Shown here: piece by piece, positions 4,030 through 36,800 of the stretch
Layout of the letters: each line of letters begins with the position of its first letter
How positions within the stretch are numbered: position 1 is the stretch's first letter
Source of the DNA: Owenia fusiformis
Taxonomy: Eukaryota; Annelida; Polychaeta; Sabellida; Oweniidae
DNA length: 64,000 bases
Assembly (NCBI GenBank): GCA_903813345.2
Contig: CAIIXF020000007.1
Location: 4,099,730 to 4,163,729 of the forward strand
Reading direction: 5' to 3'
Position numbers and translations under genes: made by a program
The notes under the pieces: model-generated
What the model was told of the DNA's origin: nothing
Seen by the model: only the letters and a program-made list of their open reading frames with translations
The model's database searches: none

Positions 4030-4079
4030 CGATGACGTTCATATGACCAAAATGCTCATTGCCAAAGAAAGTGCATCAA

Positions 4080-4655
4080 TTGGAGGATAATGGAGGCTTC
4101 TCCTTCAGCAGACAATAATAGATATACCTGAGTGGGAGGATTCTCCTTTGGGAGACAATGATGGATATAATTGACTGAGATACTTCTCCTTGGGAGACAA
4201 TGAATGATGGATATACCTGACTGAGATACTTCTCTTTGGGAGACAATGAATGATGGATATACCTGACTGAGATACTTCTCCTTGGGGGACTATGAATGAT
4301 GGATATACCTGACTGAGATACTTCTCTTTGGGAGACAATGGATGATGGATATACCTGACTGAGATACTTCTCCTTGGGGGACAATGAATGATGGATATAC
4401 CTGACTGGGAGACTTCTCCTTGGGAGACAATGAATGATGGATATACCTGACTGAGATACTTCTCTTTGGGAGACAATGGATGATGGATATACCTGACTGA
4501 GATACTTCTCCTTGGGGGACAATGAATGATGGATATACCTGACTGAGATACTTCTCTTTGGGAGACAATGGATGATGGATATACCTGACTGAGATACATC
4601 TCTTTGGGAGACAATGGATGATGGATATATACCTGACTGGGGAGACTTCTCCTTT
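4080..4655. repeat. 46-bp minisatellite, about 12 copies
   Basis: Tandem units read GATACTTCTCYTTGGGRGAC followed by AATGRATGATGGATATACCTGACTGA; the period counted on the sequence is 46 bp. Units at both ends are more diverged. It begins about 50 bp after the TBC stop codon and may lie in that gene's 3' UTR. Because 46 is not a multiple of three, several long open frames run through it on the minus strand; these are repeat artefacts. Confidence 0.95.
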
Positions 4656-5228
4656 AGGAAACATTGGGTTTAATGGATAAACAATGTTTTAATATTGTAA
4701 CATTTTTAAACATGATCATCATAACATTTTCTTATGGGATGGCCATTAAATATTTTAATGAAAGTGCAATGATTAGGAAACTTGTCAGTCCAATCAAATG
4801 CTTAGTAGTGTATTGTAGAATTTGCAATTAATTGCAGAGTTTGGTAGGCACGCCAATTACAATGTGATCGGCAGTTTGAGAATTTTTCTGCCTGTTATTT
4901 CATATTTAATTACAAATTGAATTATTTTGAGAGATTTATTTACAATATGAAATGTTGAATTCATGCATGTTAATTTTTTTCCTAGCTTATTTCTTTCTTT
5001 TTCTCTTGTCTTTAATTTTGAAACATGACTGGCGCTATTAATTATTTGTCATGATTCAGTTGTCGGTTGCCATTTTTATGATTGTTTATGTTATTCAAGT
5101 CTCAGTATGCTGACTACGGGTAACCCGGCATTTAGAAGGGATGTCTACAATAATAAAGTCACCTGTAGTTAATAATAGTTAAAAATATCAAACAGTTCAT
5201 TTAGACTTTAGAGAAAAATGTGGAGAAG

Positions 5229-6014: not shown

Positions 6015-8743
6015 ATTATTTCTTTTTTTTTTTTTTATACTACAATTACAATATTGTAGAAAGAAAACATATAGTAGTTGCATATGCTATAATATCGTAT
6101 TTATATATAATATTAGCCTTATTTAGCATAGTAGTTTTGATAAAAAGAGGAAGGGAAGGGGGGGGGGGCAGGGGAAAAGGCAAGAGGGGGACTTTTTGTG
6201 ATTTTCTGCTCGATGGTTTGAGCTTGGTGAGGGTTTTTTTATGTTCCCAGTGTGTATTTTACTACGTTATGAAATGTTTGAGTTTCAACCATTGCTGTTC
6301 CATAAGTTCAGGTTTTTTTCTTCTTTGGCTGATGCTTTCTTCTATTTTTTTCTCTGTTTTTAGGAAGTTTTGCCAGCCTATCATGTTAGGTCTCCTTATT
6401 TTCCTTTTACATGTGTTTAGGAATATCTTTTGTTTCAGGAATAGATGTTCGTTTTCTGTTTTTCCATCTCCGAAAAAGAATTTCTCAATTGTGGGTACAT
6501 CTTCGTCAAGTTGGTTGAAAGATGTTATTAGGAAGTCTTGTACGGCTTCACAATGGTATATTCCATGTTCTAAAGTATCTATGTCACTACGGCATAGACT
6601 GCATATATCAGTGTTATAGCCGTCTATGTTCATTTGTTTTAGTTGTTATAGTATAGTATCCGGAAGAATATTTTTATTTGGAAATATTTCTCTTTTGTCC
6701 TGAGAATATTTTTTCTATTTTTGTGGATTTTGGCCCACATCAATGGATTTTGTAGTTGCAGTTTGTTTTGCCAATTATCTTCCATCTTCTTTGGCAGTTT
6801 CACAGCATTGTTCTTTTTTAGTAAAATCTTGTAAACTTCTTTATTGTTTGTCTTTTTTAACCATTCTGTGTTAATTGTGACATTCGGATTCTCGGTTTCT
6901 TCTTCATTTTCTCTCGGGTGTCTTAATTTTCTTTTCCAATTTTGGGGGATGGCTGTAATTATACTGTTATATTTCAAAGTATTCCTTTGGTTCATAACAA
7001 TATCATATTTATGGCCTAATTCTGCTGCTGTGAGGAATCGATTTTCGTCCTGGATGTCTTTTATAAATTCAATACCTTTTTGTATCCATACTTCGTTTTT
7101 CATGATTTCTCCATTGATTTTTATCTGTTCATTGTGCCATAATGATTGTTGCTCTGGGTTTCTCGTATCCGGAATTGTTTGATATTTTAGACTGCACCAA
7201 TTTTTGTAGACTGTCTTCAGGTACCTTAAGTCTAAAACATTTATTTTGTCACTATTTTTTGAAAGGTTCAAAGCCCATACTTCTCCCTGCGTCAGGTTCT
7301 TCAGGTAGTAGTTCCATATCTTCTTCCATTTGCCACTATATGTAGGGTCTATATATTTCTTTATCCATTTGATGCTTAGGTTTTTTACGTATGATTGTAA
7401 GTGGAGCATGTTTAGGCCACCTCTCTCTTGTTCGTTCATCATTATCTTTCTTCCAATTTTGTCTGGCTTCTCATCCCATATAAAGTTGAAAAACATGTTT
7501 TCTATTTCTTTGATAAAGTCATCTGTTGGTGTGAGCACTGTACATAGATATGTCAGCTGAGATACGAGGAGTGATTTTATCATTATTATTTTTCCTAGAG
7601 GTGTGATGTTTCTACTTTTCCATGCTCTAATAAGTCCTTGAATTTTGTTTCTTTTCTCTGGGAAATTTAAACTGTTTATGTCTCTTCCATCTAAAGGAAT
7701 GGTTATACCAAGGACTTTTATATCTTTTTCTTGGTATTTTAGCCCTGATGCCATGCTTTCATCTCTTACTTGTTGCTGTAATAGTGCATTTTCTCTGCCT
7801 ATCACGGCTTCTTCGGTTTTGTGGAGATTGATGTTCAGTCCTGAGATTTCTCCAAAATTTCTGAACTTTTTAATTACTTTTTTTGCGGATGCAATATTTC
7901 TTACAAAGACTGATGTATCATCGGCGTATTGTGAAATCTTTACTTCTCCATCTGGTATTTGTATGCCTTCAATTTCTTCATCTCTTCTGATTGATTCACT
8001 CAATATTTCGGCACATAGAATAAATAAATACGGACTTAGGGGGCATCCCTGTCGTACTCCTCTGTTCAGGTTAAAGTAGCGTGATGTATACCCGTTATTT
8101 ATTACTGAGCTTTTTGCATCGTTGTATATGGTTTCGATCCATTTTCTAAAGTCTGGTCCAAAATTGAAGTAATCTAGCGTCCGATCAATAAATTTCCATT
8201 CCACTGTGTCAAAAGCTTTTTCAAAGTCGATGAAAAGCATTATGCCAGATTCATTGTTTGATTTTAGGTGTTCCATACAGTCTATTATGAGTCTAATATT
8301 CTCTGATATATTTCTCCCTTTAATAAAACCTGTTTGGTCTTCGTTAATTATTTTTGTTAAATGGGCTTTCATTCTTTCTGCTAGACATCCTGTAATTATT
8401 TTGTAGTCTGTGTTTAGCAATGATATTGGTCGCCAATTTAATAGGCGTAGAATGTCACGGTCTTTTTTAGGTAGTTGGGTTATAATGCTTCTTTTTTGTT
8501 CGGTTGATAATTCTTCTTTATCCAATGCTTCCTTGTAGCTTTTTACCAGTATTGGCACAACTGGTTCTTGGAAACATCTATAAAATTCGCTTGTTAAGCC
8601 GTCGCTACCTGGTGACTTCCCGGTCTTCAGGGACTTGATCTGTGTTGTTATTTCTTCTAAGGTAATATAGCCCTCGCAGCTCTGTTTTTCCTCTTCTGTG
8701 AGACTGGTGATTGATTTTATAGCAGGGAAGAATACTTTACTTA
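6015..8743 (-). mobile_element. 5'-truncated L1/Tx1-clade LINE insertion
   Basis: A non-LTR retrotransposon copy on the minus strand, between identical 17-bp direct repeats. Its 3' end is marked by a T-run on the plus strand (about 6021-6036), the expected poly(A) tail. The 5' end is truncated inside the reverse-transcriptase linker at 8743, so the endonuclease and ORF1 are missing. It lies in the intergenic space between the TBC gene and VPS8. Clean duplications suggest a fairly recent insertion, though the ORF carries at least two lesions. Confidence 0.93.
6262..8741 (-). pseudogene. LINE ORF2 remnant: reverse transcriptase and C-terminal zinc knuckle
   Basis: Copies element RNA into DNA at the target site in the intact family. 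The frame is open from the truncation point near 8741 to a stop at 6639. Recognisable blocks are RPISLLNTDYKI, DQTGFIKGR, FIDFEKAFDTVEW, RGVRQGCPLSPYLF and the catalytic QYADD, all typical of the L1/Tx1 group. A frameshift near 6690 and an in-frame stop near 6655 separate the main frame from the remaining C-terminal part (6262-6633), which holds a CSLC...H...C knuckle. The copy is therefore non-functional as read. Confidence 0.9.
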
Positions 8744-8760
8744 CTTACTTTGACATTATT
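8744..8760. repeat. Target-site duplication of the L1/Tx1 insertion (5' side)
   Basis: Second copy of the 17-bp duplication at 5998-6014, directly abutting the truncated 5' end of the LINE. Confidence 0.93.
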
Positions 8761-9811: not shown

Positions 9812-12800
9812 TCAGTCTCTATCAAATCCAGGTGGCGCTGCTAGTCTCAACTGAAAGTTCTCATTGGACAGAATGCTGCTCCCACTCCGACTTTGTTTTG
9901 AACTTTTACTGGCTGCTGTGTCCATTTTCGATAGTTCATGCAAAACAACCAACTGAAAACCAAAATTAACAATGCCAACTGAATAAAGGAATCTCAACTT
10001 CTCATTTTACTAAATACATTTATTGGAATTTTAAGTGTTAAATCTTGGGTTTTAACAAGTAGCAGAACACACTCATCTGTAAACTGAAATAGGACTTCCA
10101 GATTATGGCTAACCAAAATGTAAAAAATTAAAAAAGGATGATCTTTTCCGCAACTATTAACAAAATTTTGATCTTTAACAGATATTCTAAGTGAGTCTCA
10201 ATAAGTCGAGGAATTGAACAACATCATGCAATTGTGAGACCCCTAATACATACCCTGGATCTTGTTTTTTGACTTTTCTTGAGGTTATCTATGGCCTGGA
10301 TCTGCTGAGGGTTTATATAAACCTGTAATAAAAGTTACAATTAATAAACATTGATTGTATCCCTATTTATACATTATTCTTGGATGATTTCCCAGTTGTT
10401 TCAATGTCAAGTTTCTTTTTATTATTCCATAGTAACTGATATTCATAGGATATCTGATGACAAAAATGTGACTGTGTGAAAAATATCATATTTTGGCAAA
10501 CATACACCAAACCATCAAATAAGGCTTTTAAAACAAGATGCTGTATCCGATGGATACCAGAATTTTGTGACTTGAACAATTGCTAATCAGTAGAGCATGT
10601 AGTTCGGAAAGTTTGATTTGAATCATTTTAGCACTCTTTGACCATGATGTAAAGAGAAATTTATAAGCTTTACTCATGATATGATACTCGTATATGCTCC
10701 CTTGTGCATTCATGGATAAAAATCATAAACATAGGATATCCTTTATATATCCTATAAAAAAGTTCCTATCAAAAATTACTACTTGCCTCTTTTTTAGTTT
10801 TATCAGGCTTTATAGATGGCGCTTGCTGTGTTCCATCCTTGGATGATAACCTTTGTATACGTGAGCTTGGTGCCACACCCCTCTTACTGCTATTACACAG
10901 ATAACAGACCCATTGTTCTTCTCCATCAACCATGTGACTTGACCCAGTGCTCTGCAGGCAAGGAATGTGATATGCATGACTGCATCTGAAAATCAATGTA
11001 TTTAATTTACACAATTTATGCAAATAAAACCTGGATGTATTAAATAGTATACAAATAGTGACTGCCATTGAGGGCAATAGTGTAAATTATTTCCCCGAGG
11101 GAATATCCTCTACAATGTACTATTCCCGAAGCCGCAGGCTGAGGGAATAGTATATTGTAGAGGATATTCCCAAGGGGAAATCATTTACACTATTGCTCGA
11201 AATTAGGCAGTCACTATTTGTTTTATTATATACCCTATACTGACTCTTGTCCCGTTTCCTCTGCGAAGGCCAAAAAGGCTTAGAAAGCCCCCTCCCCGGG
11301 TCCATTGTTAGCATTATAAGCTGTGACGTCATCAGATGCTCAACAGAAATTTTTGCCTCTGAGACTCTCACTTGACAAATTCAATCGCGTTTAACACGCG
11401 GAATAGATTATCATAACACTTGAAATTACACAGAAGTATTGAGCTTAGGGAACTTTATACACGTTGCTTATATTGTATCGTTCACGCACGTCTGTCATGG
11501 TGAACGGAGTTGATTTGTGTTTGTGCTCATCCTCCATTTTTCTGTTTTTCGTCTGCGCAGTGATGATGAGCAGACGTTTCCAAGGGTAATAGAGCTTGCA
11601 ATTGTGACGTCAGCGGGCAATAGTTCAAATGTATATTCCCGCTGACGTCACATTTGAGGGAATATAACTTTCCGAGGGAAATAGTAAATCTATTTCGGAA
11701 CACGTGACTAGGTATTGACCAATCAGGATTAGTGTTACATATTGGGTATATAATAATACTAAATATGTGAATTGTGAAATGGGCAACCATCTATTAAAAT
11801 GTCATCATCATCTCGCTTCACTTGCTTTCTTTTTTTCAATGAAACCAAACTGAACTGTTGGTTGGCTATCACAAAAACACATGTTTCGATCTTTAATGCT
11901 GCCCTTCACCTATGGAGATTACAAAAATAAATCAAAATTCTTTGATGAGAATATTACCCCAAGTGGGTTTGTTGTATGTGACAAGGCTTTAGTTCATTTT
12001 TAATTTTGCCTATGTATATATATCTTTATCAAAAATATAATCACTTGTATCAATCAATCAAAAAATGTTTGGCATACACACAAATAGAAATCGTTCCAAG
12101 TACACTGAACTATGAAAATGTTATAAAAAACATGTAGAGGTCCAAGAAAATTCAGTTTGTACTGTCATAATTTTGGCAAACATGTCCTGTATGCAAGAAG
12201 CGTATCAAAATCAAGTGCAAAAACAGTCTGGTATCCATTTGGGTGAAAGAGAGGAGATTGATAAGACAGAGCAAAATCTGAGCATTTCGAAAATGTTGAA
12301 CAAGATCATATTAGGAGGATTGGCACTCGTGTGTCTGGTGAATATCGCAGGTTCTGCACCAGTTGACGAATATGGGTATGTACCTCAAATGTTACCATTC
12401 GATAGCAATAGTGTGATATCCTATATTATAATATCACAGTACATGAATTACAACTATATTATTCTCTCAAAATCATACAGGTAGTACATGATCTTTGATT
12501 TCCATTTATACATCATCAAAATCATTACAAAGCTACATATTTGCAGTATGGGTTATCACTTTTGTAGCCAAGACAACACTTTTTTATTACCAATGATGCA
12601 AGATGGGAATATGCAATCAAGATACATTTATTGTACTGTATTAGAAAAGTACACTGAATAAATAATGTAATATCCATCAATACCAAATTCTAATCAATGC
12701 ACACATACAATATAGCCCAAATATTTCGACCCAAAATAAAATTATATACAATGTAGTAGATATATTTTTTGTTTATACAATCATACCTAAATAATGTTTC

Positions 12801-15800
12801 ATAATGGTGTCACCAACTTTGATTTTTACTTAATCTGAAAAACATTTTACGATTCCATGTTAGGGAATTGGAGAGTATGTGATTTAGAAACTGCACAAGA
12901 GGATTTTTGAATTTTTGCAGACTACACTGAATAATTTGATAATTTAAATTAAGTTGATTTGAATTCGTATTTATATGGAGAAAACAGATATTTTAAAAAA
13001 TTCTACAAAAAAACAGACCACAGTGGCTTGGCTCAAGTTGCGAGCCGGTCATGTGTGAAGTCTAGCTCACTGATTTCAGATTGGAACGTTTTCAACTTGC
13101 CCAGCATTAAACTACAATATGTCAGCTTGATTCCCATATGAACTAATGACTTCTGGCAAACGTTCTGGCAAATCGAGATAATTAATGCATTTTAATGCCA
13201 AAGTATTTCAACATATACTTAATATCCCAGGCCCAAGAACACGGTCCAGTTCCCCCTCCCCCACTCACCATATACTAAAGGTCCAGGGCTTAATATAGAT
13301 TATATGTTTTATATGTTAGTCGCTTTATATTGTAATCTACAGTCTTTTGCTTTGTTATTCTTAGGGAGAATCTCGATGACATTGAATCGGTCCTTGAGAC
13401 TGAAGACCGTGAGGTGAACGAGGATGAGATTGAATCGGTCCTTGAGACTGAATACCGTGAGGTGAACGAGGATGAATTGGAATTTGAGATAAGGGTAAGT
13501 CAGGTCCACAAATTGCCACTTGTATACATTAAACAACATTTCCTTTGTTGTCATGGCCAATTTGAAAAAAATGTGTAAAATAACCACATTAAAATTACTT
13601 TACAATAATTGTCACTTTTTCTGAAGATATATACAGAAAAAAGTAACCATATAAATCACCCCCTCTCACAAAAGTTTTATAACTTTTGCGAAATCATTTA
13701 CCTTTTTGGCAAAGCTTTTTAAATGATAATCTGAAGTGACAGGTTTAAATGAAGTGACAGGTTTAAATGAAGTGACAGGTTTAAATGAAGTGACATGTTT
13801 AAATGAAGTGACAGGTTTAAATGAAGTGACAGGTTTAAATGAAGTGACAGGTTTAAATGAAGTGACAGGTTTAAATGAAGTGACAGGTTTAAATGAAATG
13901 ACAGGTTTAAATGCACATGCTCATATTGAGATATGCATAGCAATACAGTTATTTGATGATAAAACCAGGCCTTTTAAAAAATACTGTTAAAATCATGCCC
14001 ATTTGAGTCCTAAATCACTCTAATTTTGTCTTGCAGGGTACTGCATGGCGCTTTTTCAAGGCAAAAGAGTCTTTTAAAGCCACCAAATCAGGGGACCTCA
14101 AGTTCAAGAAGAATGCAGCAATTTTGCTCCAACTGGATTATCTCCCTAGAAAAAACATGAAAGTAAAAGGCTATAAAAGGATTAACAATGGTAAGAAATG
14201 GATCAGTGGTAAAGTTAACACCAAATATTTGAACTACTATGGGAAGAGTATTATGGAAAGAAAATACAGCGAACCAAGTAACGGAAAGATTAAGCTACTT
14301 GCCTAATTCATCCAGCTGCGTCGAACAGATGTGTTATCTAAGAAACATAACTCATTGAACTGAGGAAAAAACAGATTAAGCTACCGACTAATTTTTCCAG
14401 CTGTATTAAATATAATATGTAATAGAAACTCATTCAACAAACCAAAGGACAGATAAATTGAGCTAGGTCTTAATTTATTCAGTTGTGCTCAATGTTGATT
14501 TCACTTCATTTTTCACCAATAATGTTATGTAAATCGTTAAAATTATTAAAAACTATCAACTGGAAAAAAACTTTATTTGGTTGGTATATCATAGAACTTA
14601 ATTAATTTGAATTGAAAAATTTCCACTTACTCAGTAACACATCAGTTTTCTGTAATTTAATTACTTGGAGAAATAAATGACCATATGAAAATGTGTATTA
14701 ACTATAGTTCATAGTTTGTATTTCAGAAGTTAAAAGTGTGTATTTCAAAGCTAATAACAGTATTGAGTATTTCAGGAGTGAAAAGAGAGTATTACAGAAG
14801 TTAGTAACTGCATATTTCAGGAGTTTATAATAAGGGTGTATTGCAGAAGTTCTTGACTGCATAATTCAGAAATCAAAAGCATGTTTTTCAGAAGTTAAAA
14901 AAACAATGCTGAGAAAGCTAACTCTAAGTGCTCATGACCCCTTCCCCTCAAAAGGTTCCACCCTTATGAAATGTCATCTTTGCAATGATACATTGTATGG
15001 ATTCATCGAGCAGTTTGCAGTGTATTATTACCAGAAAAAGCCCTATAGACTTCTTTACAGCAGTGCAGCCTGTATTGCTTTAAAATGGTACCATAGTATT
15101 GTGAACTTGTTGACAGATAGCCAAAAACCATGTGGGCCAAAAATCATTTAGCATCCAAACTCAAATTTATTTTCTATTTTCCACCCTTGTAACTTCTATC
15201 ATAAAATCATAAAAATACATTTGAGCCAGGCCACAGGAAAAGGGGTCTTATCACAAATTTTTTCAATATTCTGATTTTTTGTTTATCTTAAAAATTAGTA
15301 CCATGGGTACTGGGCTCACATGGTAACAGAAAAAAACGGATATATTTTTTTGCTGATTTTTTGTTACAAAATTATTTCAAGCCATCTGTCTCTCAGTCAA
15401 TTAAAATGGCTGAAAAAAAAACGGATATAATTTTTTGCCAATAATTTGTAACAAAATTATTTCATACAACTACTCTTTACAGTGACATGGCTTTTTGCAA
15501 TGCAAGACACCTGAAATTATTTGTAAAGCTAGGAAATGGGCCAAAATTGAATTTCGCGAGACAAAAATGGCGACCATTTTGAAATCAGGCAAGCTTTTGA
15601 ACCAGGAGTCATAGGGGATTTTTTTGTATTGATGTTGAACAAAAATAACTTGAAACTGGAATCCTATCGACAGAGGTTTGAAGCAAACGGTCCAAAAGAG
15701 GATTTCGCGAGACAGATGGACAAATCAATGTTAACTAAAATGGCTGAAAATAAAAAAAAAGGATATAGTATTTTGTCGATTTTTTGTAACAAAATTATTT

Positions 15801-18800
15801 CATACAACTACCTTTTACAGTGACATGGCTTTTTACAATGCAGGACAGCTGAAATTATTTGTAAAGCTAGGAACTTGGCAAAAAGTGAATTTCGCGAAAC
15901 AAGAATGGCAACCATTTTGAAAATAGGCGAGCTTTTGAACCAAGAGTCATAGGAGAGTTTTTTGTATTGATGTTGAACAAAATTAACTTAAAATGGGTAT
16001 CCTATCGACAGAGGGTTTAAGGTAAATGGTCCAAAAGTGGATTTTGCGAGACAAATGGACAAATCAATGTTAACTAAAATGGCTGAAAATAAATAAATGG
16101 ATATAATTTTTCGCTGATTTTTCGTAACAAAATTATTTCATACATCTACTCTTTACATTGACATGGATTTTTACAATGTAGGACACTTGAAATTATTTGC
16201 AAAGCTAGGAAATGGGTCAAAAGTGAATTTCGCGAGACAAAAATGGCGGCCATTTTGAAAATAGGCAAGCTTTTGAACCAGGAGTCATAGGGGAGTTTTC
16301 TGAATTGATGTTGAACAGAAATAACTTAAAACAGGAATCCTATCGACAGAGGTTTTAAAACGTGCCACAGAAAGTGGATTTCGCGAGTCAGATAGACAAA
16401 TCAATGTTAACTAAAATGGCTGAAAATAAAAAAATGGATACAATTTTTCGCTGATTTTTTGTAACAAAATTATTTCATATATCTACCCTTTACATTGACA
16501 TGAATTTTTACAATGTAGGACACCTGAAATTATTTGTAAAGCTAGGAAATGGGTCAAAAGTGAATTTCGCGATACAAAAGTGACGGCCATTTTAAAAATA
16601 GCCGAGCTTTTGAACCAAGAGTCATAGGAGAGTTTTTTGTATTGATGTTGAACAAAAATAACTTAAAATGGGAATCCTATCGACAGAGGGTTTAAGGTAA
16701 ATGGTCCAAAAGTGAATTTTGCGAGACAGATGGACAAATCAATGTTAACTAAAGTGGCTGAAAATAAATAAATGGATATAATTTTTCGCTGATTTTTTGT
16801 AACAAAATTATTTCATACATCTACTCTTTACTTTGCAATGGATTTCTACAATGTAGGACACTTGAAATTATTTGTAAAGCTAGGAAATGGGTCAAAAGTG
16901 AATTTCGCGAGACAAAAATGGCGGCCATTTTGAAAATAGGCGAGCTTTTGAACCAGGAGTCATAGGGGAGTTTTCTGAATTCATGTTGAACAGAAATAAC
17001 TTAAAACAGGAATCCTATCGACAGAGGTTTTAAAACGTGCCACTGTTATTGACAGAAAGTGGATTTCGCGAGTCAGATAGACAAATCAATGTTAACTAAA
17101 ATGGCTGAAAATAAAAAAATGGAAACAATTTTTCGCTGATTTTTTGTAACAAAATTATTTCATATATCTAATCTTTACATTGACATGGATTTTTACAATG
17201 TAGGACACCTGAAATTATTTGTAAAGCTAGGGAATGGGCCAAAAGTCAATTTCGCGAGACAAAAGTGACCGCCATTTTGAAAATAGGCGAGCTTTTGAAC
17301 CAGGAGTCATAGGGGGGTTTTCTGTATTGATGTTGAACAGAAATACCTTAAAACAGGAATCCTATCGACAGAGGTTAGCTAGGAAATGGGCTAAAAGTGA
17401 ATTTCGCGAGACAAAAGTGACGGCCATTTTGAAAATAGGCGAGCTTTTAAACCAGGAGTCATAGGGGGGTTTTCTATATTGATGTTGAACAGAAATAACT
17501 TAAAACAGGAATCCTATCGACAGAGGTTTTAAAACGTGCCACTATTGTTGACGGACAGACGGACGGACGGACGGACAGACGGACGGACGGACAGACAGAC
17601 GGACAAGTGAGTGATTGCAAAAGCTCACCATGTGAGCTAATAAAAAGCACAAAAAGACCTTTCAATTGAGCCATGGCTTGTGTTTTAACAATTTTCCCTT
17701 GCATATATGGACCAAAAAGTCAGATTTGAATTTAGCATATTTTCATCTTAATCTTGGGCACATTTTTGGCTCTGTAGCACAATTTAAATTTTTGTGATAA
17801 GACCAGTTTTCCTATGGCCAGGCTCATTTAATAACATTTTGCTGTAAGACAAAGAATGACAATTGAATTCTGGGATTTTCCCCCTCTGCTGTAATACACT
17901 TACTTGAATACAATAGCTGTGTCATTGTCTGTACTGGCAGAGAATGTTTTATTACATAGGCTGCAACTATTACTCCTAGCTATGTAGCCTCGTGTAGCGA
18001 CTCTCGTCAGACTGGTCAACTGGGCATGCAGGTCGTGGTTTAGCAGACTATTACACGTGTTTAACAATGTCTGAAATATGATATATCTTTTATTTGATAG
18101 AACTCAATCTGTTACTTTCACAGGCTGAAGAGATGAGATTTTTTACAGTAACACTAATCCCCCAAAGAGAAATGGGCCAAATATGGAAAATGGACCTCAA
18201 TTTTAGAGATATGGCCCAGATTTTCAAAATGGCCTGGTTTAAAAAAGAGGCCAAATATTTAGTTTGGTCTAAACAATTTCATCTACTCCTTGTCAATGTA
18301 CAAAGTGTTCACAAAGCTCTATTTTATATATACCTTTTCATAGTTATAGGTTTCCAACATTCCTAATATGAGGTCCTTGATCTCTTCAAACTTTCCTGTA
18401 CTGTATGTTGGGTCCTGCATGATTTTCTGGAGTATTGCTGGTAGCGAGATATACCCCGACATACTGTTTAGCACATGACGTGTCATCTCTTTAAACTCTG
18501 GAAAAAATTAATGATAATAATAAAATACATGGAAATGTTTTTTCATTCCTATGTTTTTATTAAGTTTTCTGAATGTTGAGATTATGATTAGATATAAATA
18601 TCATATAGTATGCAACATGAGTATAATTTGATATACTTAGAATTCACAAATATCCAGAGTTACTTGTCTTGTCTTCGTTAGCCCAGCTTTCTACATTTCA
18701 GTGATATGAGACTTAAATTCTTAATCAAATTCAAAAGCATCTCCACTTTAAATCTGAAGCCATTATTTAACATGTGGTTTTATGCTATTCACCTTGTAGA

Positions 18801-21800: not shown

Positions 21801-24800
21801 TAACCATAATGGCATTCACAGGCATGTCAACTTAGGAACACCAAAAAGGAGTGACTTACAAATGTTGGGGGTAGGGACAAAAGCAAATGCGTGACATATA
21901 CGCAATTAGAGTGAAAATTCATAACGAACTGTGTTCGTTTTTTCAGCCTTCGTTTTTTGATGTTTAGCCATTCGTTTTTTTGAAATATACCTGCATTAAG
22001 TGGTTACCATTAGCAGTTAGGCAGCTGTGAGTGTCGAATCCCGGTCATAATGCTTACTGGGTCAAAATTTAAATTTACTCCATCTCCATCTGATCCCCCT
22101 AATACCATTAAGTCAAAAACTTACAATTTGGCATTCTCAGCAAGTGTGAGAAGTCTCTTTTCATCAAACTGTTGAAAGCCACCTGCATGAAGTAGTTCAA
22201 GGAGAGCCTGCTCCCTTTCTTCATGTCTTGAACCTTCACCTGGCTTCGACAAAAACTCTAGCACCTAAAAATGACAGCTTTGTTACACAAATGGACAACC
22301 TATAGTACTACAGCATGAACATCACACACCGAAAGTGACATAGCATGTCATAATACATACAATCACTTGAACAATGCTGAAATATTTTGGCAAATAAATT
22401 TCATTGAAATTTGTATTCGTATAAGCGTACTTGATGGAATAAACAGAAGTTAGAAAATAGAAGCAGGGAGATATTTCTCAACAACCACATTCACATGCAC
22501 AATAACATCTTTACAATGAGATACAATTAACTTTTTTAAATAAATTACAAATTACAACAGTAAACTTTACTGTGCCAAAGATTTTCACTTCATTATAATG
22601 CCACTAATGACTGGGCTCCTTATGCGCTTAAGTGAACTAATGGTAATAAAATCTGTTCGTAATAAAAAAACGTTTACCTGTTCAAACAGCAGTCTGTTTA
22701 CCATGATCTTGTTCTCATGTCTGGCCATGAGACGCGCCAGGAAAGTAAACAACATTCCAATTTGGGATGGCTGCAAAAAATATTTATATTCAGGATAAGA
22801 TTCCCATACTCCCATCAAACTCTGAGAAAATCATCTGATACTTCCTCACAAGTGTGAGTTTTGTTATATTTGCGATTCTGATTCTTAATAATTACTAAAT
22901 CACCAGTTTTACCTCATCCCATAGACAATGACCTTCTCTGATTTAGAAAGGTATGCCATCATTGTATACAGCGAATGAAGACTTGATAAGTAGCAGAGTG
23001 AGAATGCTTCTTTTAAACTTTTAACAAATAACACTCACAGTGAATCCTACACTTTCTACCATGATCTGGAGTAAGATATCAACTATTCGTTGTCTTTGAT
23101 TCACTCTGAAAAAACAAACAAACAAACATGGACATGTTGCTAAAATGCATGACTCTAGGCTATACATTATTACCGATACAATCCATGTTTAGATTTATGG
23201 GATTCTAATTTATTTTCATAATAGATTTTCAGATTTTCTAAGCCTGGCCTTAAAGGGGAAAATAAACATACCGTATTCACCGTAATAAGCGCCCTAATAA
23301 GCGCTTTTTAAATTGAAATTCCCATTGTAACCCATTACAAAGAGCGCCCATATATGAGAGAAGTATAAAATCCCCGGGAATTTCATGTATGGGAATTTTT
23401 CTTGTGAAAAATGCCTTATTTGCAACAAAAGTGAAAGCATATTTTTACAATAATGATATGTATTGATATTGGAGAGAATATGGTAAAGATCGCTAAAATA
23501 AAGAATCCAACTATATTGACAGTGATCGAAGAACTCCCCTGAGCAGAGCCCCTCCAGGTCAAGGAATTGTTTCTCGCGATTATCTTCAATATAATTTTTT
23601 TAATTTGATGACAGATCATCATTTTTTATGTAAAAGTTATGAAAAAGTCGAGAAATCTTAAAAAGAAACAAGAAAGTTCACGACCTTGAGATGACCTTGA
23701 CGATCGCTAAGTGGGTAAAATGTCGAAACAAATCTCTGAAACGTGATCATTTCCTTCATTCATTATGGACTATTTGAGATAATTAGCTTACCTTATTAAC
23801 TTAGTATGATGTGGGAAGCACCCACTGATAGATGATTCATCGAGGGGATGCATTAGGGGTGGACCCTTAATACGGCGATTACGGTACATGTATTTTGGCT
23901 TCTGGACTTCTGGATTCAAATGTTAATACTTTCTGTCAAAATGTATATGATGAAAAGCTTTAGATTTACAATAGTCTGATTTTGGCCAACTAAACAAAAA
24001 TTACTGGACAGAAGTGCACAAATAGAAACATATGGATGAAAGGAAAAACAGACATGCAAAATGAGTGGTTGATTCCACAGGCTCACCATGTAAGCTAAAG
24101 GAGTTCCCTTACCCATCTTCTGTGTTAAATTCCTCCTCTTCAAAGGCCAAAGCAAGAACATTGAGGAACTCTCTTGTGTCAAACTGTAGTAAGCTCTTCA
24201 AATGTGGATAAACTGGTTCATCTAAAATAAAAAATAGATGAATGTTATTTTGATAAAAAGTGTTAAAGGTCAAAGGTCAGAAATAGAATACTTAAACTTA
24301 AATTAAAGCAAATTGCAACTAATGATACAAACAAGTTTTTACACAAGACTGCTCATTTAAATTATTTTCTCTTGTGTAAGGCTTTCTATGATTCAATATT
24401 TCTCACATTAAACACAATCTCATGCGTGTTATACCTGAATCTGGATTCTTAGTGTGGAGACATGTGATAGATTTAGTGACATCTTCCTTGACGACAGATA
24501 CGAGATGTTCGGGGATATCTCCAAGTGGGTAGGCGCGACCAGCTAGACAGCAACTGATGTACACCAATAATTTATTTCCAAGTTTAATCTGCTCATCTGC
24601 AATCGTGGAAAAAAATATGACATAAGCAATTTCATTTTCTTACCATTTTTGAGTAGGCAAAGAAAATCTGAAAATGATGATGTCACTGTTTGCTGTTTGT
24701 GTATGACAGACAGTTTTAAGGAGTATACTAGTTATACTTTATTGCATTGTAGTAGTAACAAACTAAATCAAGTTAACAACAAAACAAAACACAGTTATAA

Positions 24801-27800
24801 AGATCATCTAGTTTTGAACATTCTTGTAAAACTCAGAATGTTATTCTTAACAAAACTCAATCATCCTTTTCTCTAGTGATTCAAATTATGAACAGATTGA
24901 TATTCATTATTTTCCTTTTTTTTCAAATAAACAATTTGCTACGTAGATGAATAAATAGATGACAGCACATGTGTTGATAGGGCTAGATATACAGCTATAA
25001 CAACTGGAAAAACTTATAAATCACTTTTCTTGATTTTGTTGACGTGTGCATTGTGAATGAACAATAAAACTGTGATCCTTGAGAGAACAAATCAATTTAA
25101 AAAGATTTTTAACATGGTGTCAATGGGATTTTAAGTCAACTGTCTTCAGAAAAGTTAAATATCCTTGGAAATTGAATAATATGAAATGACTATAAATCAA
25201 AGTTCTTCTAGTAGAAAATTATGCACAGAATTCAATCATTGTCATACCTAGTTGCTCACAAAATTATGATTTCAATCTTAGTCTGATTTGAGAACTTGTA
25301 GATGATTTTGAAAAAGAAAATTGGTCAATTTGAAGCATGTTGAAGAAGACCTTTTTGACCTTGAGAAGGTTTATTGATGGTGACATAAAACAAAAGAAAC
25401 TGTAAATCCTTGAAAGAAAATAACTCCTCTTTCATTTCATGATGTGAATGGACTGACCTGTTAATTGCTTGCCAGTTATAACTGCAGCTCTTAAAAGTCT
25501 GAGTAATTCTTCTAGAGGTGTTGTGTAGTCATTCATCCCCTTGTTGTAGACGTACAATATGGCGTCATATAAACCATGGCTCCAACATAATATGACAACC
25601 TGCCAGAAGACATACTTAGTGAGAAAACAACTCATCCTATCAAACAAACAGTGATAAATATCACACTCTTTTGGGAAATTCAAAATGGCCACCAAGTAAT
25701 TTTACCAGCATGCCTGAGACTTTATCAGATCTTGCATCTGTAAAAATTGCAAATTGAACAGATAAGTTGTTTTCCTAAAATTTGATGACAAGATTTATGC
25801 GGTACTCGGGTACCTGCCTACCAACGCTACCAGCAGCACAAGATGACAATATACATGTACCTGTAACACTTTGAAAGTGTGATAAAAGGACTACAAATTT
25901 CCATAATCATTTCTGTTGGTTTGATACTAGATATAGTAAGGTTTCAACCATCTCAAATGCATATTCTGTACTAAATATAGTATTCTATGCACAGTTTGAA
26001 TGTAAGATGAAACAAATTTGATATGAGCTAAAGCACAGAATTACCTCTATTTTGAAGAGTCTAGAAAAAACCTACCTGGTGAATATCAAGGCTTGCTATA
26101 TCTAGGTGCACAATACAGGCCTCAACATCCTGTAGCATTCCTTTCTGTTCATAGTGATTCACAAAATCCTTCATTACGACAGGGGTGATGAACACAAGTC
26201 GGTCACTTAAGATATATGGCTCGAGGCACTCAAGGAAGAATCCATGTGCTATCATATCTGCACTGAACTTTTCATAGATTTCTCCAAATAATATATCCCT
26301 GGTAAAAACAAATGAATTATCTTTTTTAATTACAGTTAATAACAACAAGAAAAAGGATGATGACTAGGCGTTTTAATTTTTCTTTAATATTAAAATAGCA
26401 AAAAGATGTCAAAAGGAAAAAAATCTTAGAATCCTTTAACTTAAAGGCAGAATCAGATCTGGTACAAGAAAAAATACAGATTTTGGGATGGCCAGGTTGT
26501 TAGGTACTACTAAACATAACGAATTTGTAAAGGCCTTAGTGTATCATACAATAAAATCTGTCTAATCTAAACGCTACACCAAAAATGTTCTGATTGGCAT
26601 TTTGAGATTTTTGACAAAGCAGATTAAAATTGGACAGAAAAAAGTATTCAGATTGACAGGTGTTTGGTTATACAAGTTTTATTGTACAAGGACTAATGTA
26701 CTTACATTCTATCCAAATTGAGACAATAGTCCACACAGACAGGCACCACATCCAGATAATGGGATTCAAGCTCCTGAATGCTACCTAGAATATTAAATAA
26801 ATTCACCACAGTCATATTGTATTTCAACATGGCATTAAAAAGTAGAATTCGAAAGGCTTAATAGACAGATGTGTCATTAATGCTCAAGAGTGTATCGTAT
26901 ATTAAGAATAGACCTTTCCAATAAATCCTGAACCCTTTTAGTGAACCAATGAACTTAGGGTATATTAACTAGATTTATGATCCCATACTTTGTAGATAGT
27001 AAAACTGTGGGAAGATTTGGAAAATTAGCAGCAAGTTTATCCTTTTTCTCCCCTAGAACTGTAATAATCTAATACTGAAATGGAGGCCTCTGAGGGTCCA
27101 AGTGGTTTAAAGAGCATTATTAGCCTCAAGTTTTTACCTCTTTGTGGGCAGTCAGTTGTCATCGAACGATCCACAAAGTCATGAAGTAGCTGCAACATCT
27201 ATAAAATAAAATAAAAAACTGAAAAAAGTGGCTATTTCCTGTTTTTCTAAATTATCATGGGGGGCTATTTAAAGATTCCTCTAAACATCCCAATGTGAAA
27301 GATTATATTTGTGAAAAACTGAATATTTGTAATCTCCTCTTCTTTCCTTTAATGTGAAAAGGATGACTACAAGGTCCAGGATTCAGCTTTAATACTGAGC
27401 TCTCCATTAAAGGAGGTGCAATTGTGACATGGTTATGATGTCCACAAATCCAACATGGCAGGGGTACAATGAGAATACATGGATCAATGATCTGCTTGTA
27501 CTGAATTCATAAGATTTACTGAATTATCATTTCAAGCCTTCAAAAGAAAGAAAAGAAATTCTGTTTTTTTAAATCTATTATTTGGAAATAACATAAACAT
27601 TGAGGATTTTCCTACCTTCTCTGCCACAACCACTTTGCGCCTCTGTATGTTTCCCGCTAGGCCCACAACAGCTCTAGCTTTGTTCGAGTAGAACGACTGT
27701 GCCAGGGCAAGGGCATCTTTGTAGTTGTTTTGTTTCACAAGAACGTTGATTCTCTGCAACAGAAATACTTGAAGTTCTTCAATGATTCGAGCAAAAGACA

Positions 27801-30800: not shown

Positions 30801-33800
30801 TCTTCTCTCATTAATTTTCCAGTCCTTCATGATGATATTCTCCTGCATATTGTATTTTTTTTTTTTTTTTTTTTTTTTCATGTTATCAATTTATTTCTAA
30901 TATAAACATTTACATTCAATTACAAATTCTAATTGCCAAGGTTTTGCAACATTAGCGGCAATTTAATATATATATTATATATACATGTAGATATTAGATA
31001 ATGAAATAAGATAAATTTGTTAAGGTTATTTCAAAATACCTGAAGGTTATCCCATGGGCCAGGATGTTAACGGAACTTGAAAAATAATTCGGTCATTGCA
31101 GAAAAAAGGACTTGTCAAATTACTACTAGATAGATAATAAAACAAGGCTTGTATGTATATAATAGCTAACAATATGAATTAAAGCTTCATTCATAGTAGC
31201 ATCCAGGTTAGTGCTTCCAAACAGTAAAAATTGTAATTTGTCATTCAAGTTGTAGTTATTGAACAAGTCACTTAAATTGTAAGTACGAAGGCCTGCAATG
31301 AGGTTGTTTCTTTCATTCTGTAGCAGTGGGCATTTTAAAAGAAAATGCATGGTTGTCATTGGTACACCACAATGGCACAAAGGATCAGTAATGTCTTTGA
31401 AGTTGTGAGCATAAAGGTGTGATTTTAATAAGAGGCCAGATCTAAGTCTATTAAGTTTTATTTCGAGATGTCTGGGTAAGGTCACATTTAATTTAGTAGT
31501 TGGGATTAAAGAGACAGGGCTCTTGTACTCTCGCACTAATCTTTTAAAACTAGAAATAGGTTGACCCCTTCTAGTATCAGGTGGCAAATCATTCCACAAT
31601 GTTATAGCCTGAAATATGGTACTTCTTTTAGAAGACATGCTCAGTCGAGTTGGAAGAGAATAATCTCTTTGATCTCTTAAATTACGGGCAGGTATATGCT
31701 CATATTTACGAAGTAAATCACAAATAAACGGGGGGTTGATATTATATCTGCATTTAAAAACAAACATTTTTAGGTGCTCGATTCTTCTAACGGATAAGGA
31801 TTTCCAATTCAAAGAATTTAAGACTTTAATAGTATTGGATCCATGAATAGAACCAGATACCAAACAGGCTGCTCGGTAGTGGAGTCTGTCAAGAGCTTGT
31901 AGTTTCAAATTTGAAGCCTTATTGTAAATTACATCGCAATAATCAAAATGTGGCATGATATACGTATTATATATTATCTCTAAGTGCATACTATTTAAAA
32001 GTTTGCTCAATTTTTTCATTGGTCTTAGGAGTGAGGTAACTCTTTTTATAATCTGATCAATATGGTAATTGAAGTTAAGGTGTTTGTCAAGATTAAGCCC
32101 TAGATGTTTGTGATTCTCACAACTGGGAATAACATCTGCACCTAATCTCAATGGTGGTGGGTCAAAAGGAATATTTCTTCTAGAGAAAATGATGTCGGCG
32201 CTTTTTTGAGCTTTGAATTGCATCTTCCAGGTGGCAGCCCAGAGAGCAAGCTTGTCCAAATCACTTTGAATTGGTTGATGAATATTGAAGAACACTGTAT
32301 TTTTGTCATATGGGCAATAAATGGAAGTATCATCGGCAAAAATGAACGATTTTGATAGTAATTCATCTGGCAAATCATTTATATAAATTAGAAATAGTAA
32401 CGGTCCAAGGACAGACCCTTGTGGCACTCCAGCATTGATGGTATAGTTCACAGACTGCTCATTAGGTTCATTTTGATTGTTAATATTATTTGAAGACCAT
32501 TTTGAAAGGGTGCCATTCACGCGGACTCTTACTCTTCTGTTATCTAAGTATGAGGACATTAAATTGATAAATTTATCATTACAACCGTATCCCTTAAGTT
32601 TTGAAATTAATAGTTTATGTGGAACTAAATCAAAAGCTGATGTTAAATCCAAAAATACTGATCTTACATTCTTGTTATCATCAATGTGTTCATGAATATC
32701 ATGAACTATATTAATAAGCTGATTGACAGTACTATGTTTGGGTAAGAACCCACTCTGAAGCCTATAAATAAGATCATGTTGCACGAGGTGAGAATATAGT
32801 CTTTTATGAATTATAGATTCCAAGATTTTAGAGATTGAACTAAGAAGAGTAACTGGTCTGTAATTAGTAACTAGTGCTCTGTCTCCCTTTTTAAATATTG
32901 GAACTATTGTACCCTCTTTCCAAATGTCAGGAAAAATGTTGTCTTGAAAAATTCTGTTAAATAGTAATGAAAGTGGATCTGCTATAGAATGTGCACATAA
33001 TTTGAGCATTTTATTGGATATCTCATCAGGACCATGTGCTTTAGTGACATCAATATCATTAATTAGATGTAAAATCTCTTCAGGTGAGGTTGACATCTCA
33101 GCTAGGATACTTTGAGTTCTTGGTCTAAAAAAGGGAATATAATTGTCATTGATATTTACAATGTTCTTATTGACAAAATATTTGCATATTGTATTTAGTA
33201 CATATCCATTTATTTCTTGTTATAGCTTTCTTAGTATACGAATTTAGTATGTTGCTCCTGTAGCCTTGACATTGTAGTTTATTTCCCAGGCTGGTAACTC
33301 TGTTTGTTGCATCTTCCAGTTGACTGCAGATTCTTGAAATCCTTATTATTTGTGATATAAATATTCCATAAGATTGGTTTCTAGGAATATTTCCAGATAG
33401 ATCAGGATATGAGACTATTTGGAAATTGAAGTTTTCCCTTTTGTCGTATAGTTTTGTAGTGATTTGTTTATTTACTATTTTCATTTGTATGTCCAGAAAA
33501 GTTGTTTCTGTATCCTTCTCATTTTCCTTGTTTAACACTAGTTCTTCAGGATAGATGTTCTTCATATCAGTCTCCATTTCTCCGTCGTTGTTTATAGTAC
33601 ATAAATCATCGATGAATCTTGTAGTTTTAGCATATTTTAGTACTTTGGAGTAGTCTTCCCTATACATTTTCTCAATGGCTTGAAATTCATAACTGTATAA
33701 GTATAGGTTTGCCATATATGGCGCCGGATCGATTCCCATCGGTATTCCAATTTTCTGTCTTAGAATTGATTTCCCTGCTTTAAAGTAGGCTGTATCCACG

Positions 33801-36800
33801 ATGAAATCCACTAGATCATTGCACTCTCCTTTGGTATATGCCTTTTTATTATCCGCCTTTCCACCCCATTTGGCTTCATCTCCACCTACTGTTATCTTTT
33901 GGTTAGTTCCTCCTCTGAAGGCTTTATCTATCACCCATTTCAGTTTTTCCTTTATGTCAGTTAGATTAATCTTTGTGTATAGTGTAGAGAAATCATACGA
34001 GGCTATGTTTCTTGCCGCGTTCCTTAAATTTACACTTTTAATGTTATCTAACATATTTTGGTTATTGTCACTGATCCACATCCTATTGGCACCTGTATAA
34101 TCCTTAATCTTCTCACAGTATCTTTTGTTAGTATATTGCACTAGTTTAAGAATTTTGGTCAGTTTTTTGGCAGCTGGTTTTACAGAACTTTTCTTTGAGC
34201 CAATGATATATCTAAATTTAATTGGCTGTTTATGCATTTTAATTGTAAGATGAATCCTTGGTATAATATTTTGTTCTTCTCCCGGTTCAATCTTGAATTT
34301 TGTTTTCATTGTCTCTTTGATTTCCTCCACTATATCTTGTTCTCCTTTATCTTCTACCCTTTGATAGGTGTCACTCCCAATTTCCTCTTTAATCTTCTTT
34401 ATGTAGTATTGTTTGCACATAAACCCAATATTATTTGCTGCCTTATCAATAGGTACAATGGCATATTTTTCCTTGAGTTGATTGAGTTCTTCCATAGCAT
34501 TATGGTCCTTTAGTGTCTGCTTTGGATTTTTAATATGTCTAAATTTTGTATTTTGAAGTAACTCAATTTTTTGTTTAACCTTTTCCATTACAGTATTTTT
34601 CCATTCATTTAAGTATACTTTTGAAACTTTTTCATTTTTTGTCCAACTTATTGCAAATTCATCTATTCCTTTCTTTATTTCTTCTTTTGCTTTCCTGAAG
34701 TTAATGTTTCGTTTTTCTCTATAGCCAGGACCTTTACTAAATAGCTTTCTCAATTTTGAATTTTGTATAATCTTCAGATTTCCTGTTATGACGTGACCAT
34801 GGTCTTCATCCTTAAATTCAGATGTATTACAATCACATTCTCCTGTATTGTTGCCTTCGTCGATACTTTCTGTAATCTCACTATAGTTGAACAGTTTATT
34901 CCTTATTGGCTTTGTGTATATATAGACAATTCCTGGTGGTTCCTTATTTTTGATACTTGAAGGTATTGTCTTGATCACTTCTTCATCTCTTAAGATATTT
35001 GCAATGTTGATTACTTCTACTGCTTTGTTTTCAAATAGTATTTTACAGAATTTTGTTGGTTTCTTTTTCCTATTCTTGGTCTTTAGTTCATTGTTTTTCC
35101 TAAGTTTTGATTGGATTCTGTCCTCCAGAGTAATTTTAAGTCGTGTGTGTAGTCTATCATTATCTTCTATATTTATCATTCCAAGTTTTTTCAATTCTGT
35201 CTTCTTCATTTGTGGGACTAATCTCAAGATTGTTTTCATACCTGCCAGTACATTTCCATTGCTTTGTTCCACTATAGTTTCAAATACGTCATTGGCTTTT
35301 AATGCCTTTTCTTTACGGTGGTTTCCCTTTGGCCTTTTGTTTTTCTTCTTCCGTTTGTTATCAAAGTCGTTGTATATTACATCATCTTCTGTTCTTTGCT
35401 GAAGATTTTTCTCCAGTCTGTTGTTTAATCAATATGGGTGTACACATTGGAATTTCTTTATCCAGTATGACTCCTTGTCCTCTCTTTGTTTTTGGTCTGC
35501 TGCCTTTTTGATTTCATATTTTTTACTTAGTTTGCTAATTTTCTTATCCTCTATTGGAACTCTTTCAATTATTTGTACATTATATTCTGAATCTTTACAT
35601 GGGCCTTCATTGAAGTGACGGAGGGCTTCACTATATCCCTACCGAACTTCGTTCGTTGGGATAATAAGTATATGGTAAAATATTAATACCCTCCTCTTAC
35701 CTGATAGAAGTGAATGGTCTGATCTCTGCCAAAAGCAAGTACAGGGTCAATGACTCTGTCCTTCTGTGAGACCTGAATGATCACAAATTGCCACGCCAAC
35801 AGGGGAAGGGTAGCGGGATCTCCCTGAAGAACAAAAAGGCAGAGTCAACGAAACAAACATATTAAGACAAAGATAGGCTGTTAAGTAGGACTGGTACAAT
35901 TGGAATGGTTTTTGGAACTTGCTTTGGGTTCAGGACTTCAGGAAGTTAGAACTGCCGGTAAAAATTAAATACTGGCTGGATTATCAGTTCATTGATATTC
36001 AGAAACCCCAACCCCAGTATCCAAGGTTTGTACACCCTTACATACATTACAATAAAATACAATGCAAAAACTGCAATCAAATCTTTTTCAGTATAGAAAC
36101 ACCTGTATTGTATTACTGCATCCTATTACCTTTAATGGATGGGCAAACATGACCTTGAGTTGTGGTCTAAGTCTCACGAGGAGAACCTTAGAGAAGCTTG
36201 CCATTGCCAAGATCATGACGTCTTTCATAGGGTGGTCTTTCACTGTGTAGTTCATATGTAACGGTTCCACGATACATACTTCCCCACGACTCCCTGAGAA
36301 CAGGCATTTAGACTCACACTTCCTGACTCCAATCAATCGTCTGAAATTATAGGATGTTTCGTTTACTATTTATCTTTCATGAGTGGTCCTTTACTGTGTA
36401 TAGTTCATATGTAGCCATTGCACCATGACGAAAATACTTGTTCTACAAGTTAAAGATAGCCCGTTATGAATTTGCCGGCAATGCCAGGCATTAAAACAGG
36501 TGTTTACAGGTATTTTGTTATCAATAAACCAAATGTGTTAATTACAACATGTTATAAAACAGATTCTTGAACCCAATCAATTAACAACATGAGCAATTTT
36601 ATATATTTTTAATTTAGGGGAATTAAGAGTTTTTGAAATAAACAAGAATTATATGGTGCCCAGGCAGACGAACGCATGTCAATAATACATAAAAAATTGT
36701 TTTGATGTATACTGTTATTTATAAAACATGAGCAATTTTATATATTTTTAATTTAGGGAAATTAACAGTTTTTAAAGTAATCAAAATTTGTGTGGCACCC

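What the first reader, a model, noticed from the sequence alone, without database searches (positions are those of the whole stretch)
12293..14306. Orphan secreted cationic protein gene nested in a VPS8 intron on the opposite strand
Three exons join in frame with canonical splice sites. They give a clear signal peptide, an acidic pro-segment built from an exact 16-residue tandem duplication, and an 89-residue Lys-rich domain with no cysteine. I recognise no family. A charge-balanced precursor (acidic pro-part, basic mature part) suggests an antimicrobial, matrix or peptide-hormone precursor, but that is inference.
Basis: partly seen in the sequence, partly recalled or inferred. Interest (0 to 1): 0.78.

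Follow-up and report, generated by a model that had tools for sequence, protein, structure and literature searches.

The report
Secreted SH3-fold precursor family, non-MIA
A small gene inside an intron of a trafficking gene encodes what looks like a secreted, strongly basic protein folded like an SH3 domain (a module normally found inside cells); it belongs to a small, fast-diverging gene family in this animal genome and does not match the known secreted SH3 protein it was tested against.

Summary
The gene model holds: three exons (12293-12375, 13365-13494, 14037-14306, +) give 160 residues: signal peptide, acidic pro-segment, basic 89-residue domain. It lies antisense in the VPS8 intron 10986-17903, which splits the RING finger. 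It is not an orphan: six other loci in the genome carry the last exon with an open frame, and four of them give the same three-exon model and phases. Paralogs show the last exon to be a diverged SH3 domain (GDL.F..G...KWV.G...G.VP.NYF): profile-profile probability 94.5% (100 shuffles: at most 3.8%); one good AlphaFold model of five, twice; all 50 listed Foldseek hits are SH3, twice. Curated single-sequence searches stay below cut-off. Recalled human MIA is not matched (0.2%), and MIA's four cysteines are missing. The window copy lost the groove Trp and Pro and is the most basic member (+18); two paralogs are acidic, so 'cationic antimicrobial' is no family trait. Window versus C11: signal exon 89% identical, mature domain 29%. 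Best reading: a propeptide-masked secreted SH3-fold binding protein, ligand unknown. Expression and other species could not be checked.

The parts
12293..12375 (+). Exon 1: signal peptide (about residues 1-21) plus the first pro-residues (APVDEY, next codon split); ends in phase 2
   Evidence: similar DNA at 6 other first exons, starting at or just inside the ATG and in 4 of 6 running just past the donor
13365..13494 (+). Exon 2: acidic pro-segment ending ...FEIR, phase 0 at its 3' end
   Evidence: homologous exon at 5 other places
13375..13479 (+). 48-bp tandem duplication inside exon 2; two 16-residue units differing at one residue; not seen in the 5 other exon 2 sequences
14037..14306 (+). 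Exon 3: mature basic domain, 89 residues plus stop, predicted diverged SH3 fold
12122..12127 (+). TATAAA upstream of the ATG, possible TATA box
   Evidence: Sequence only
14672..14677 (+). AATAAA, possible polyadenylation signal
   Evidence: Sequence only
10986..17903 (-). Host VPS8 intron, between the two exons that encode the RING finger
10772..10985 (-). VPS8 open frame with the second half of the RING finger (3' limit not defined)
17904..18103 (-). VPS8 open frame with the first half of the RING finger (5' limit not defined)

Best explanation
It is a gene for a secreted preproprotein. The signal peptide sends it to the secretory pathway (inferred from sequence). The acidic exon-2 segment travels as a propeptide that masks the strongly basic domain and is cut off at the exon 2/3 border: ...KR|D in three paralogs, ...EIR|G here (inferred). 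The released 89-residue domain folds as an SH3-type beta barrel (predicted) and works outside the cell as a small binding module (inferred). The paralogs keep the Trp, Pro and Tyr of the usual ligand groove to differing degrees. This copy has Lys for the groove Trp and Asn for the Pro and is net +18, so it most likely binds a polyanionic or acidic partner (matrix glycan, acidic protein or microbial surface) rather than a PxxP peptide (inferred). The family looks like an SH3 exon joined to a signal/pro cassette, then copied and diversified.
For: Gene model. Paralogs with the same exon order and phases. Exon-1 DNA island. Dibasic end of the pro-segment in 3 of 5 complete precursors. SH3: motif in the alignment; SH3_1 listed for 5 of 7 members at E<=10, best E 0.08; 4 of 7 PDB hits of the family profile and 8 of 11 PDB hits of the L015 domain are SH3 domains (one, 1oot, by recall), none better than E 0.05; all 7 members beat 300 of 300 own shuffles against a recalled SH3 profile, and profile-profile probability 94.5, score 39.8, against a maximum of 16.4 in 100 column shuffles; AlphaFold pLDDT 80.9 and 85.2 for the best models, five strands and a short helical turn; all 50 listed Foldseek hits SH3 domains or SH3 proteins in both runs, by title or recall. 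Groove residues. Charges. Signal exon conserved, mature exon diverged.
Against: No transcript or protein evidence. Curated models do not call it SH3: the window domain scores 12.7 bits against a cut-off of 22.9, and SH3_1 did not appear at E<=1 for the full L015 and L013 precursors, whose only hits were Spem1 (E 0.0032) and R-HINP1I (E 0.0031), both below cut-off. The margin over shuffles is small for the window (6.6 against 4.5 bits), L012 (9.7 against 8.7) and L017 (13.4 against 10.4). No Foldseek match reached E 0.001 (best 0.013 and 0.0056). The other four AlphaFold models were poor (35-49 full exon, 43-66 trimmed). The best PDB profile hit (8erw, E 2e-4) is not an SH3 protein; I take it as spurious because its single stretches score 3.4-4.8 bits. 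The window copy lacks the dibasic site; L012 has no basic residue at the end of its pro-segment, and its mature domain is acidic.
Confidence: 0.55

Rival explanations
1. Cationic antimicrobial effector: the acidic propeptide neutralises a basic domain that, once cut free, attacks microbial membranes or binds their surfaces.
For: Pro -19 and mature +18 in this copy; C11 paralog mature +11. A conserved signal peptide with a diverging mature part recalls antimicrobial precursor families (recalled).
Against: Two of seven mature domains are acidic (-3, -4) and three are weakly basic (+2 to +5). The domain is predicted to be a folded SH3 barrel, not a linear or disulfide-rich peptide. No antimicrobial family was among the Pfam hits.
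Confidence: 0.2
2. A divergent invertebrate member of the MIA/OTOR secreted SH3 family, acting on extracellular matrix as MIA does.
For: Single SH3-type domain with a signal peptide and similar size; the passages read describe the MIA family as secreted single-SH3 proteins.
Against: Profile comparison with one recalled human MIA sequence gives 0.2%, although the recalled SH3 set finds it at 91.5%; MIA is not among the PDB hits of the family profile at E<=10 nor in the two listed Foldseek top 50s (lower ranks not seen); no cysteine in three of seven mature domains, window included, and two in the other four, against two disulfides in MIA.
Confidence: 0.07
3. Decaying copy: an old duplicate that still has an open frame but is no longer expressed.
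For: Groove Trp and Pro lost, dibasic site absent, low identity to the other six (24-30%); some other loci look incomplete (no exon 2 found at L017, no exons 1-2 in 11.5 kb upstream of L016, no SH3 exon at C9).
Against: Start, frame, four splice signals and stop are intact. dN/dS of exon 1 is 0.05 against L012 and L013 (but 0.28-0.60 against the other four), and of exon 3 is 0.19-0.34 against the five paralogs with a usable dS (dS saturated, L017 gave none).
Confidence: 0.12
4. Peptide-hormone or neuropeptide precursor whose active part is a short fragment.
For: Signal peptide and pro-segment; the C9 relative shares exons 1-2 but no SH3 exon was found within about 17 kb, and it could end in a short peptide.
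Against: The conserved columns trace an SH3-like core along most of the domain; read by eye, I see no short peptide flanked by dibasic sites.
Confidence: 0.06

Closest known systems
MIA/OTOR (melanoma inhibitory activity) secreted SH3 family
   Same: Small protein with a signal peptide and a single SH3-type domain (PMC10453029, passages)
   Different: MIA has two disulfides and an added sheet and, as I recall, no acidic propeptide; no profile similarity to recalled MIA (0.2%); here no Cys (window, L012, L013) or two (L014-L017) in the mature domain
Canonical intracellular SH3 domains (Src, Sem-5, POSH, nephrocystin)
   Same: Predicted fold; GDL.F..G core and G.VP.NY end in paralogs
   Different: Signal peptide and propeptide; first ALYDY Tyr absent in 5 of 6 rows; the window copy also lacks the groove Trp and Pro
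TANGO1/MIA3
   Same: SH3 domain on the lumenal side of the secretory pathway (PMC7829582, passages)
   Different: TANGO1 is a transmembrane ER-exit-site protein; this is a 160-residue precursor in which I see, by eye, no second long hydrophobic stretch
Myticalins and conopeptides
   Same: Multigene precursors with a conserved signal peptide and a diverging mature part (recalled; one search showed only titles and abstract openings)
   Different: Here the mature part is predicted to be a folded SH3-type domain encoded by one exon, not a linear or cysteine-rich peptide

Membership tests
SH3-fold domain | Five-stranded SH3 barrel | tested here: met
   Predicted only: AlphaFold on window sequence, best models pLDDT 80.9/85.2, other four poor each time; Foldseek top 50 all SH3 domains or SH3 proteins, best E 0.0056
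SH3-fold domain | Sequence profile similarity to SH3 above chance | tested here: met
   Family profile 94.5%, 0 of 100 shuffles near it; 7 of 7 members beat 300 of 300 shuffles, three by narrow margins (recalled SH3 set; L015 and L016 rows share a name, so 6 of 7 rows in the profile)
Pfam SH3_1 (PF00018) | Score above the gathering cut-off | tested here: not met
   12.7 bits against 22.9 for the window domain; listed for 5 of 7 domains, best E 0.08; not listed at E<=1 for the full L015 and L013 precursors
Canonical PxxP-binding SH3 | Groove residues: two Tyr of ALYDY, Trp, Pro, Tyr | tested here: not met
   Window: E, F, K, N, Y; over 6 rows Trp kept in 5, Pro in 4, last Tyr in 4 (recalled Src)
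MIA family | Two disulfides (four Cys) | tested here: not met
   0 Cys in 3 of 7 mature domains (window included), 2 in 4 of 7
MIA family | Profile similarity to MIA | tested here: not met
   0.2% probability to one recalled sequence; control SH3 set versus MIA 91.5%
Secreted precursor | Signal peptide | tested here: inconclusive
   Short start, hydrophobic run and small residues before the conserved Pro at 7 places; no SignalP available
Secreted precursor | Propeptide cut at a basic site | tested here: inconclusive
   KR at the border in 3 of 5 complete precursors, single R here, none in L012
Cationic antimicrobial peptide family | Basic mature part throughout the family | tested here: not met
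   Net +18, +11, +5, +4, +2, -3, -4
Cationic antimicrobial peptide family | Antimicrobial activity | not testable with these tools
   Needs an assay

The most novel reading that the evidence does not exclude
An animal lineage captured an SH3 exon, independently of the MIA family, into a signal-plus-acidic-propeptide cassette and turned it into a dispersed, diversifying family of secreted effectors evolving like venom or immune peptides (fixed signal, changing mature part). In the window copy the peptide groove has been exchanged for a strongly basic surface while the propeptide doubled its acidic stretch to compensate: a second origin of extracellular SH3 proteins with a built-in charge mask.
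Probability: 0.4. Interest if true: 0.72.

Novelty: new variant of a known kind. Interest (0 to 1): 0.55.

Why it matters
SH3 domains are textbook intracellular adaptors; one review calls them exceptional in secreted or ER-resident proteins, and the MIA family is the secreted group that the passages read describe. A second, propeptide-processed secreted SH3 family would show how an intracellular binding module becomes an extracellular effector, and gives a natural series (groove residues mostly kept, partly lost, lost and basic) for testing how SH3 binding can change. It also shows that a gene that looks orphan from one copy can be placed once its paralogs in the same genome are read.

Tried and rejected
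MIA membership: tested, not met. Pfam, PDB and NCBIfam by single sequences: no Pfam hit over its cut-off for the window protein or its relatives, and nothing significant in PDB or NCBIfam. Weak hits taken as chance: TraE, R-HINP1I, Spem1 and RasGAP_C (each below its Pfam cut-off), Ran-specific GAP and erythronolide synthase in PDB (E 0.29-0.89), two NCBIfam models (E 0.045 and 0.1). Two of these, Spem1 and R-HINP1I, have better E-values (0.003) than SH3_1 had; I set them aside because neither recurs over the seven domains (R-HINP1I in 1 of 7, Spem1 in none). PDB 8erw: see the Against line. A partial match on C12 (31 residues, one stop, E 0.08) was not followed. Rfam: nothing at gathering score in the window. 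Looked for and not found: exon 2 of L017, exons 1-2 in 11.5 kb upstream of L016, an SH3 exon in about 17 kb after C9. Literature: searches showed, by titles and abstract openings (15 of 31 and 15 of 95 rows), no secreted SH3 family outside MIA/TANGO1. Opened as passages only: PMC10453029, PMC7829582, PMC6641155, PMC12691039, PMC12960093. PMC6641155 has a comparison table of bivalve shell proteomes whose headings include 'SH3', so SH3-bearing proteins have been recorded in shells; the passage does not say which proteins, and I could not compare. Subscription papers are not held. No animal genome collection was available for relatives.
Full report
What was checked. The three exons were rebuilt from the window: 12293-12375, 13365-13494 and 14037-14306 on the + strand, GT/AG at both introns, phases 2 and 0, 160 residues. 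The precursor splits into a signal peptide (about 21 residues), a pro-segment of net charge -19 and a mature domain of 89 residues, net +18, pI 10.3, no cysteine. The tandem duplication in exon 2 is real (48-bp period, 51 of 54 bases), but its two 16-residue units differ at one residue, so 'exact' is slightly wrong.

Host gene. The Pfam VPS8 TPR model hits exons on the - strand at window 24142-26237. Open frames on both sides of the finding, joined approximately, hit zf_RING_Vps8 (E 3.9e-13) and TPR_VPS8_2 (E 7.4e-10), and PDB Vps8 at E 0.0009, though no single stretch passed there. The exact intron is 10986-17903, 6,918 bases with GT/AG on the - strand; its two exons join in frame as ...SCSLCNKTFSASTDNDTAIVFKCSHAYHIPCL..., so the intron splits the RING finger. 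The nested-antisense description is right.

Not an orphan. A protein search of the same genome (498 Mb, 525 contigs; unnamed) found relatives of exon 1 and exon 3 near each other at several places. Further searches gave 7 loci with this last exon: the window; C10 30.64 Mb (L012); C10 32.23, 32.25 and 32.32 Mb (L014, L015, L016); C2 8.68 Mb (L017); C11 3.44 Mb (L013). All 7 are open from the splice acceptor to the stop; the stops that one search shows inside three matches are absent once the match starts at the exon. A partial match on C12 with one stop (E 0.08) was not followed. Exon 1 has 7 places including C9 12.83 Mb. The acidic exon 2 was found at the window and 5 other places. Complete three-exon models exist for 5 of the 7 loci: window, L012, L013, L014 and L019+L015. 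Exon 2 was not found at L017, and exons 1-2 were not found in 11.5 kb upstream of L016. At C9 exons 1 and 2 are present but no SH3 exon was found within about 17 kb. DNA similarity between window exon 1 and the six other first exons starts within 3 bases of the ATG in three and 4-9 bases inside it in three; it ends 4-9 bases past the donor in four and inside the exon in two, L017 and L018. That is what a real first coding exon predicts.

What the last exon is. Aligned paralogs show W..Y.A......GDL.F..G..LLL.....KWV.G......G.VP.NYF, the layout of an SH3 domain. For: SH3_1 is listed for 5 of 7 domains. SH3 domains are 4 of 7 PDB hits of the family profile and 8 of 11 of the L015 domain, at weak E-values (0.05 or worse). 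AlphaFold on the window sequence alone gives pLDDT 80.9 (89 residues) and 85.2 (72 residues) in the best model, five strands with a short helical turn. Foldseek against PDB listed 50 of 880 and 50 of 812 matches; by title, or by what I recall of the protein, every listed one is an SH3 domain or contains one, best E 0.013 and 0.0056. Against: Pfam scores are below cut-off (12.7 against 22.9 bits); full L015 and L013 precursors gave only Spem1 and R-HINP1I, E 0.003, below cut-off, and no SH3_1 at E<=1; margins over shuffles are narrow for the window, L012 and L017; only one of five AlphaFold models was good in each job; the top PDB profile hit, 8erw, is not an SH3 protein.

What differs from known SH3 proteins. 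Mapping onto Src (recalled) over 6 rows shows the first ALYDY Tyr kept in 1, the groove Trp in 5 (Lys in the window), the Pro in 4 (Asn in the window and L012) and the last Tyr in 4, window included. The window member is the most basic and has lost most of the canonical groove. MIA, the known secreted SH3 family with two disulfides (PMC10453029, passages), is not matched (0.2% to one recalled sequence), although the same SH3 set finds it at 91.5%. A review says SH3 is exceptional in an ER-resident or secreted protein (PMC7829582, passages). Literature searches (titles and abstract openings) showed no secreted SH3 family outside MIA/TANGO1; a bivalve shell paper lists 'SH3' among the headings of a table comparing shell proteomes, without further detail in the passage (PMC6641155). 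A claim of 'unreported' would be limited to those searches.

Evolution. Window versus C11 (L013): exon 1 is 89% identical in protein, exon 3 is 29%; window versus L012: 85% and 30%. Exon-1 dN/dS is 0.05 in both pairs but 0.28-0.60 against the other four. Exon-3 dN/dS of the window against the five paralogs with a usable dS is 0.19-0.34, with dS saturated (1.9-3.5); L017 gave no dS. The young trio L014/L015/L016 gives 0.50-1.39 on very few changes. So the mature part has changed much more than the signal part, but positive selection is not shown. Mature net charges run from +18 to -4, so cationic nature is not a family trait. Pro and mature charge correlate at -0.77 over 5 precursors, p 0.13: suggestive, with the window copy as the extreme point.

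Mechanism. Shown: architecture, paralogy, phases. Predicted: fold. Inferred: secretion, removal of the acidic propeptide at the exon 2/3 border (KR in L013, L014 and L015; single R here; none in L012), extracellular binding role, preference of the basic window copy for anionic partners. Rivals are an antimicrobial effector, a MIA relative, a decaying duplicate and a peptide precursor.

Limits. No expression data, no animal sequence collection, no SignalP, species unknown. The structure tool was given window sequence only.

Noticed in passing
L018:1103-2177 (G000 C9 about 12.8256-12.8267 Mb): A relative with the same signal exon and an acidic exon 2 that runs on into LKKGANRPKGYGMTAELANK, but no SH3 exon found within about 17 kb; may be a short-peptide member or a remnant.
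   Followed up: partly
G000 C12:32320231-32320326: Partial match to the SH3 exon (31 residues, 52% identity, one stop, E 0.08); possible remnant or chance.
   Followed up: no
13732-13913: 18-bp minisatellite, about 10 copies (TGAAGTGACAGGTTTAAA), in the second intron; similar stretches hit on C10, C7 and C4.
   Followed up: no
15402-17413: 338-bp tandem array, about 6 copies, in the same VPS8 intron.
   Followed up: no
6639-8744, 31126-33219, 33167-35428, 46916-48865 (all -): Long open frames that read as reverse transcriptases (ADD motif in three, IDD in 33167-35428, perhaps Penelope-like); identification by eye only.
   Followed up: no
4076-4688 (-): Tandem-repeat stretch open in three frames (SVRYIHHSLSPKEKYLSQ-type units), probably a minisatellite rather than a gene.
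   Followed up: no
L014, L017 and L019 upstream of exon 1: Shared block of 46-48 bases, 79-83% identical, within about 85 bases before the ATG (L014-L019: 77% over 228 bases including exon 1), perhaps promoter or 5' UTR; no such match for the window copy at E<=0.001.
   Followed up: partly
60321-62228: 635-residue open frame very rich in Glu, Asp and Lys on the + strand; not examined.
   Followed up: no
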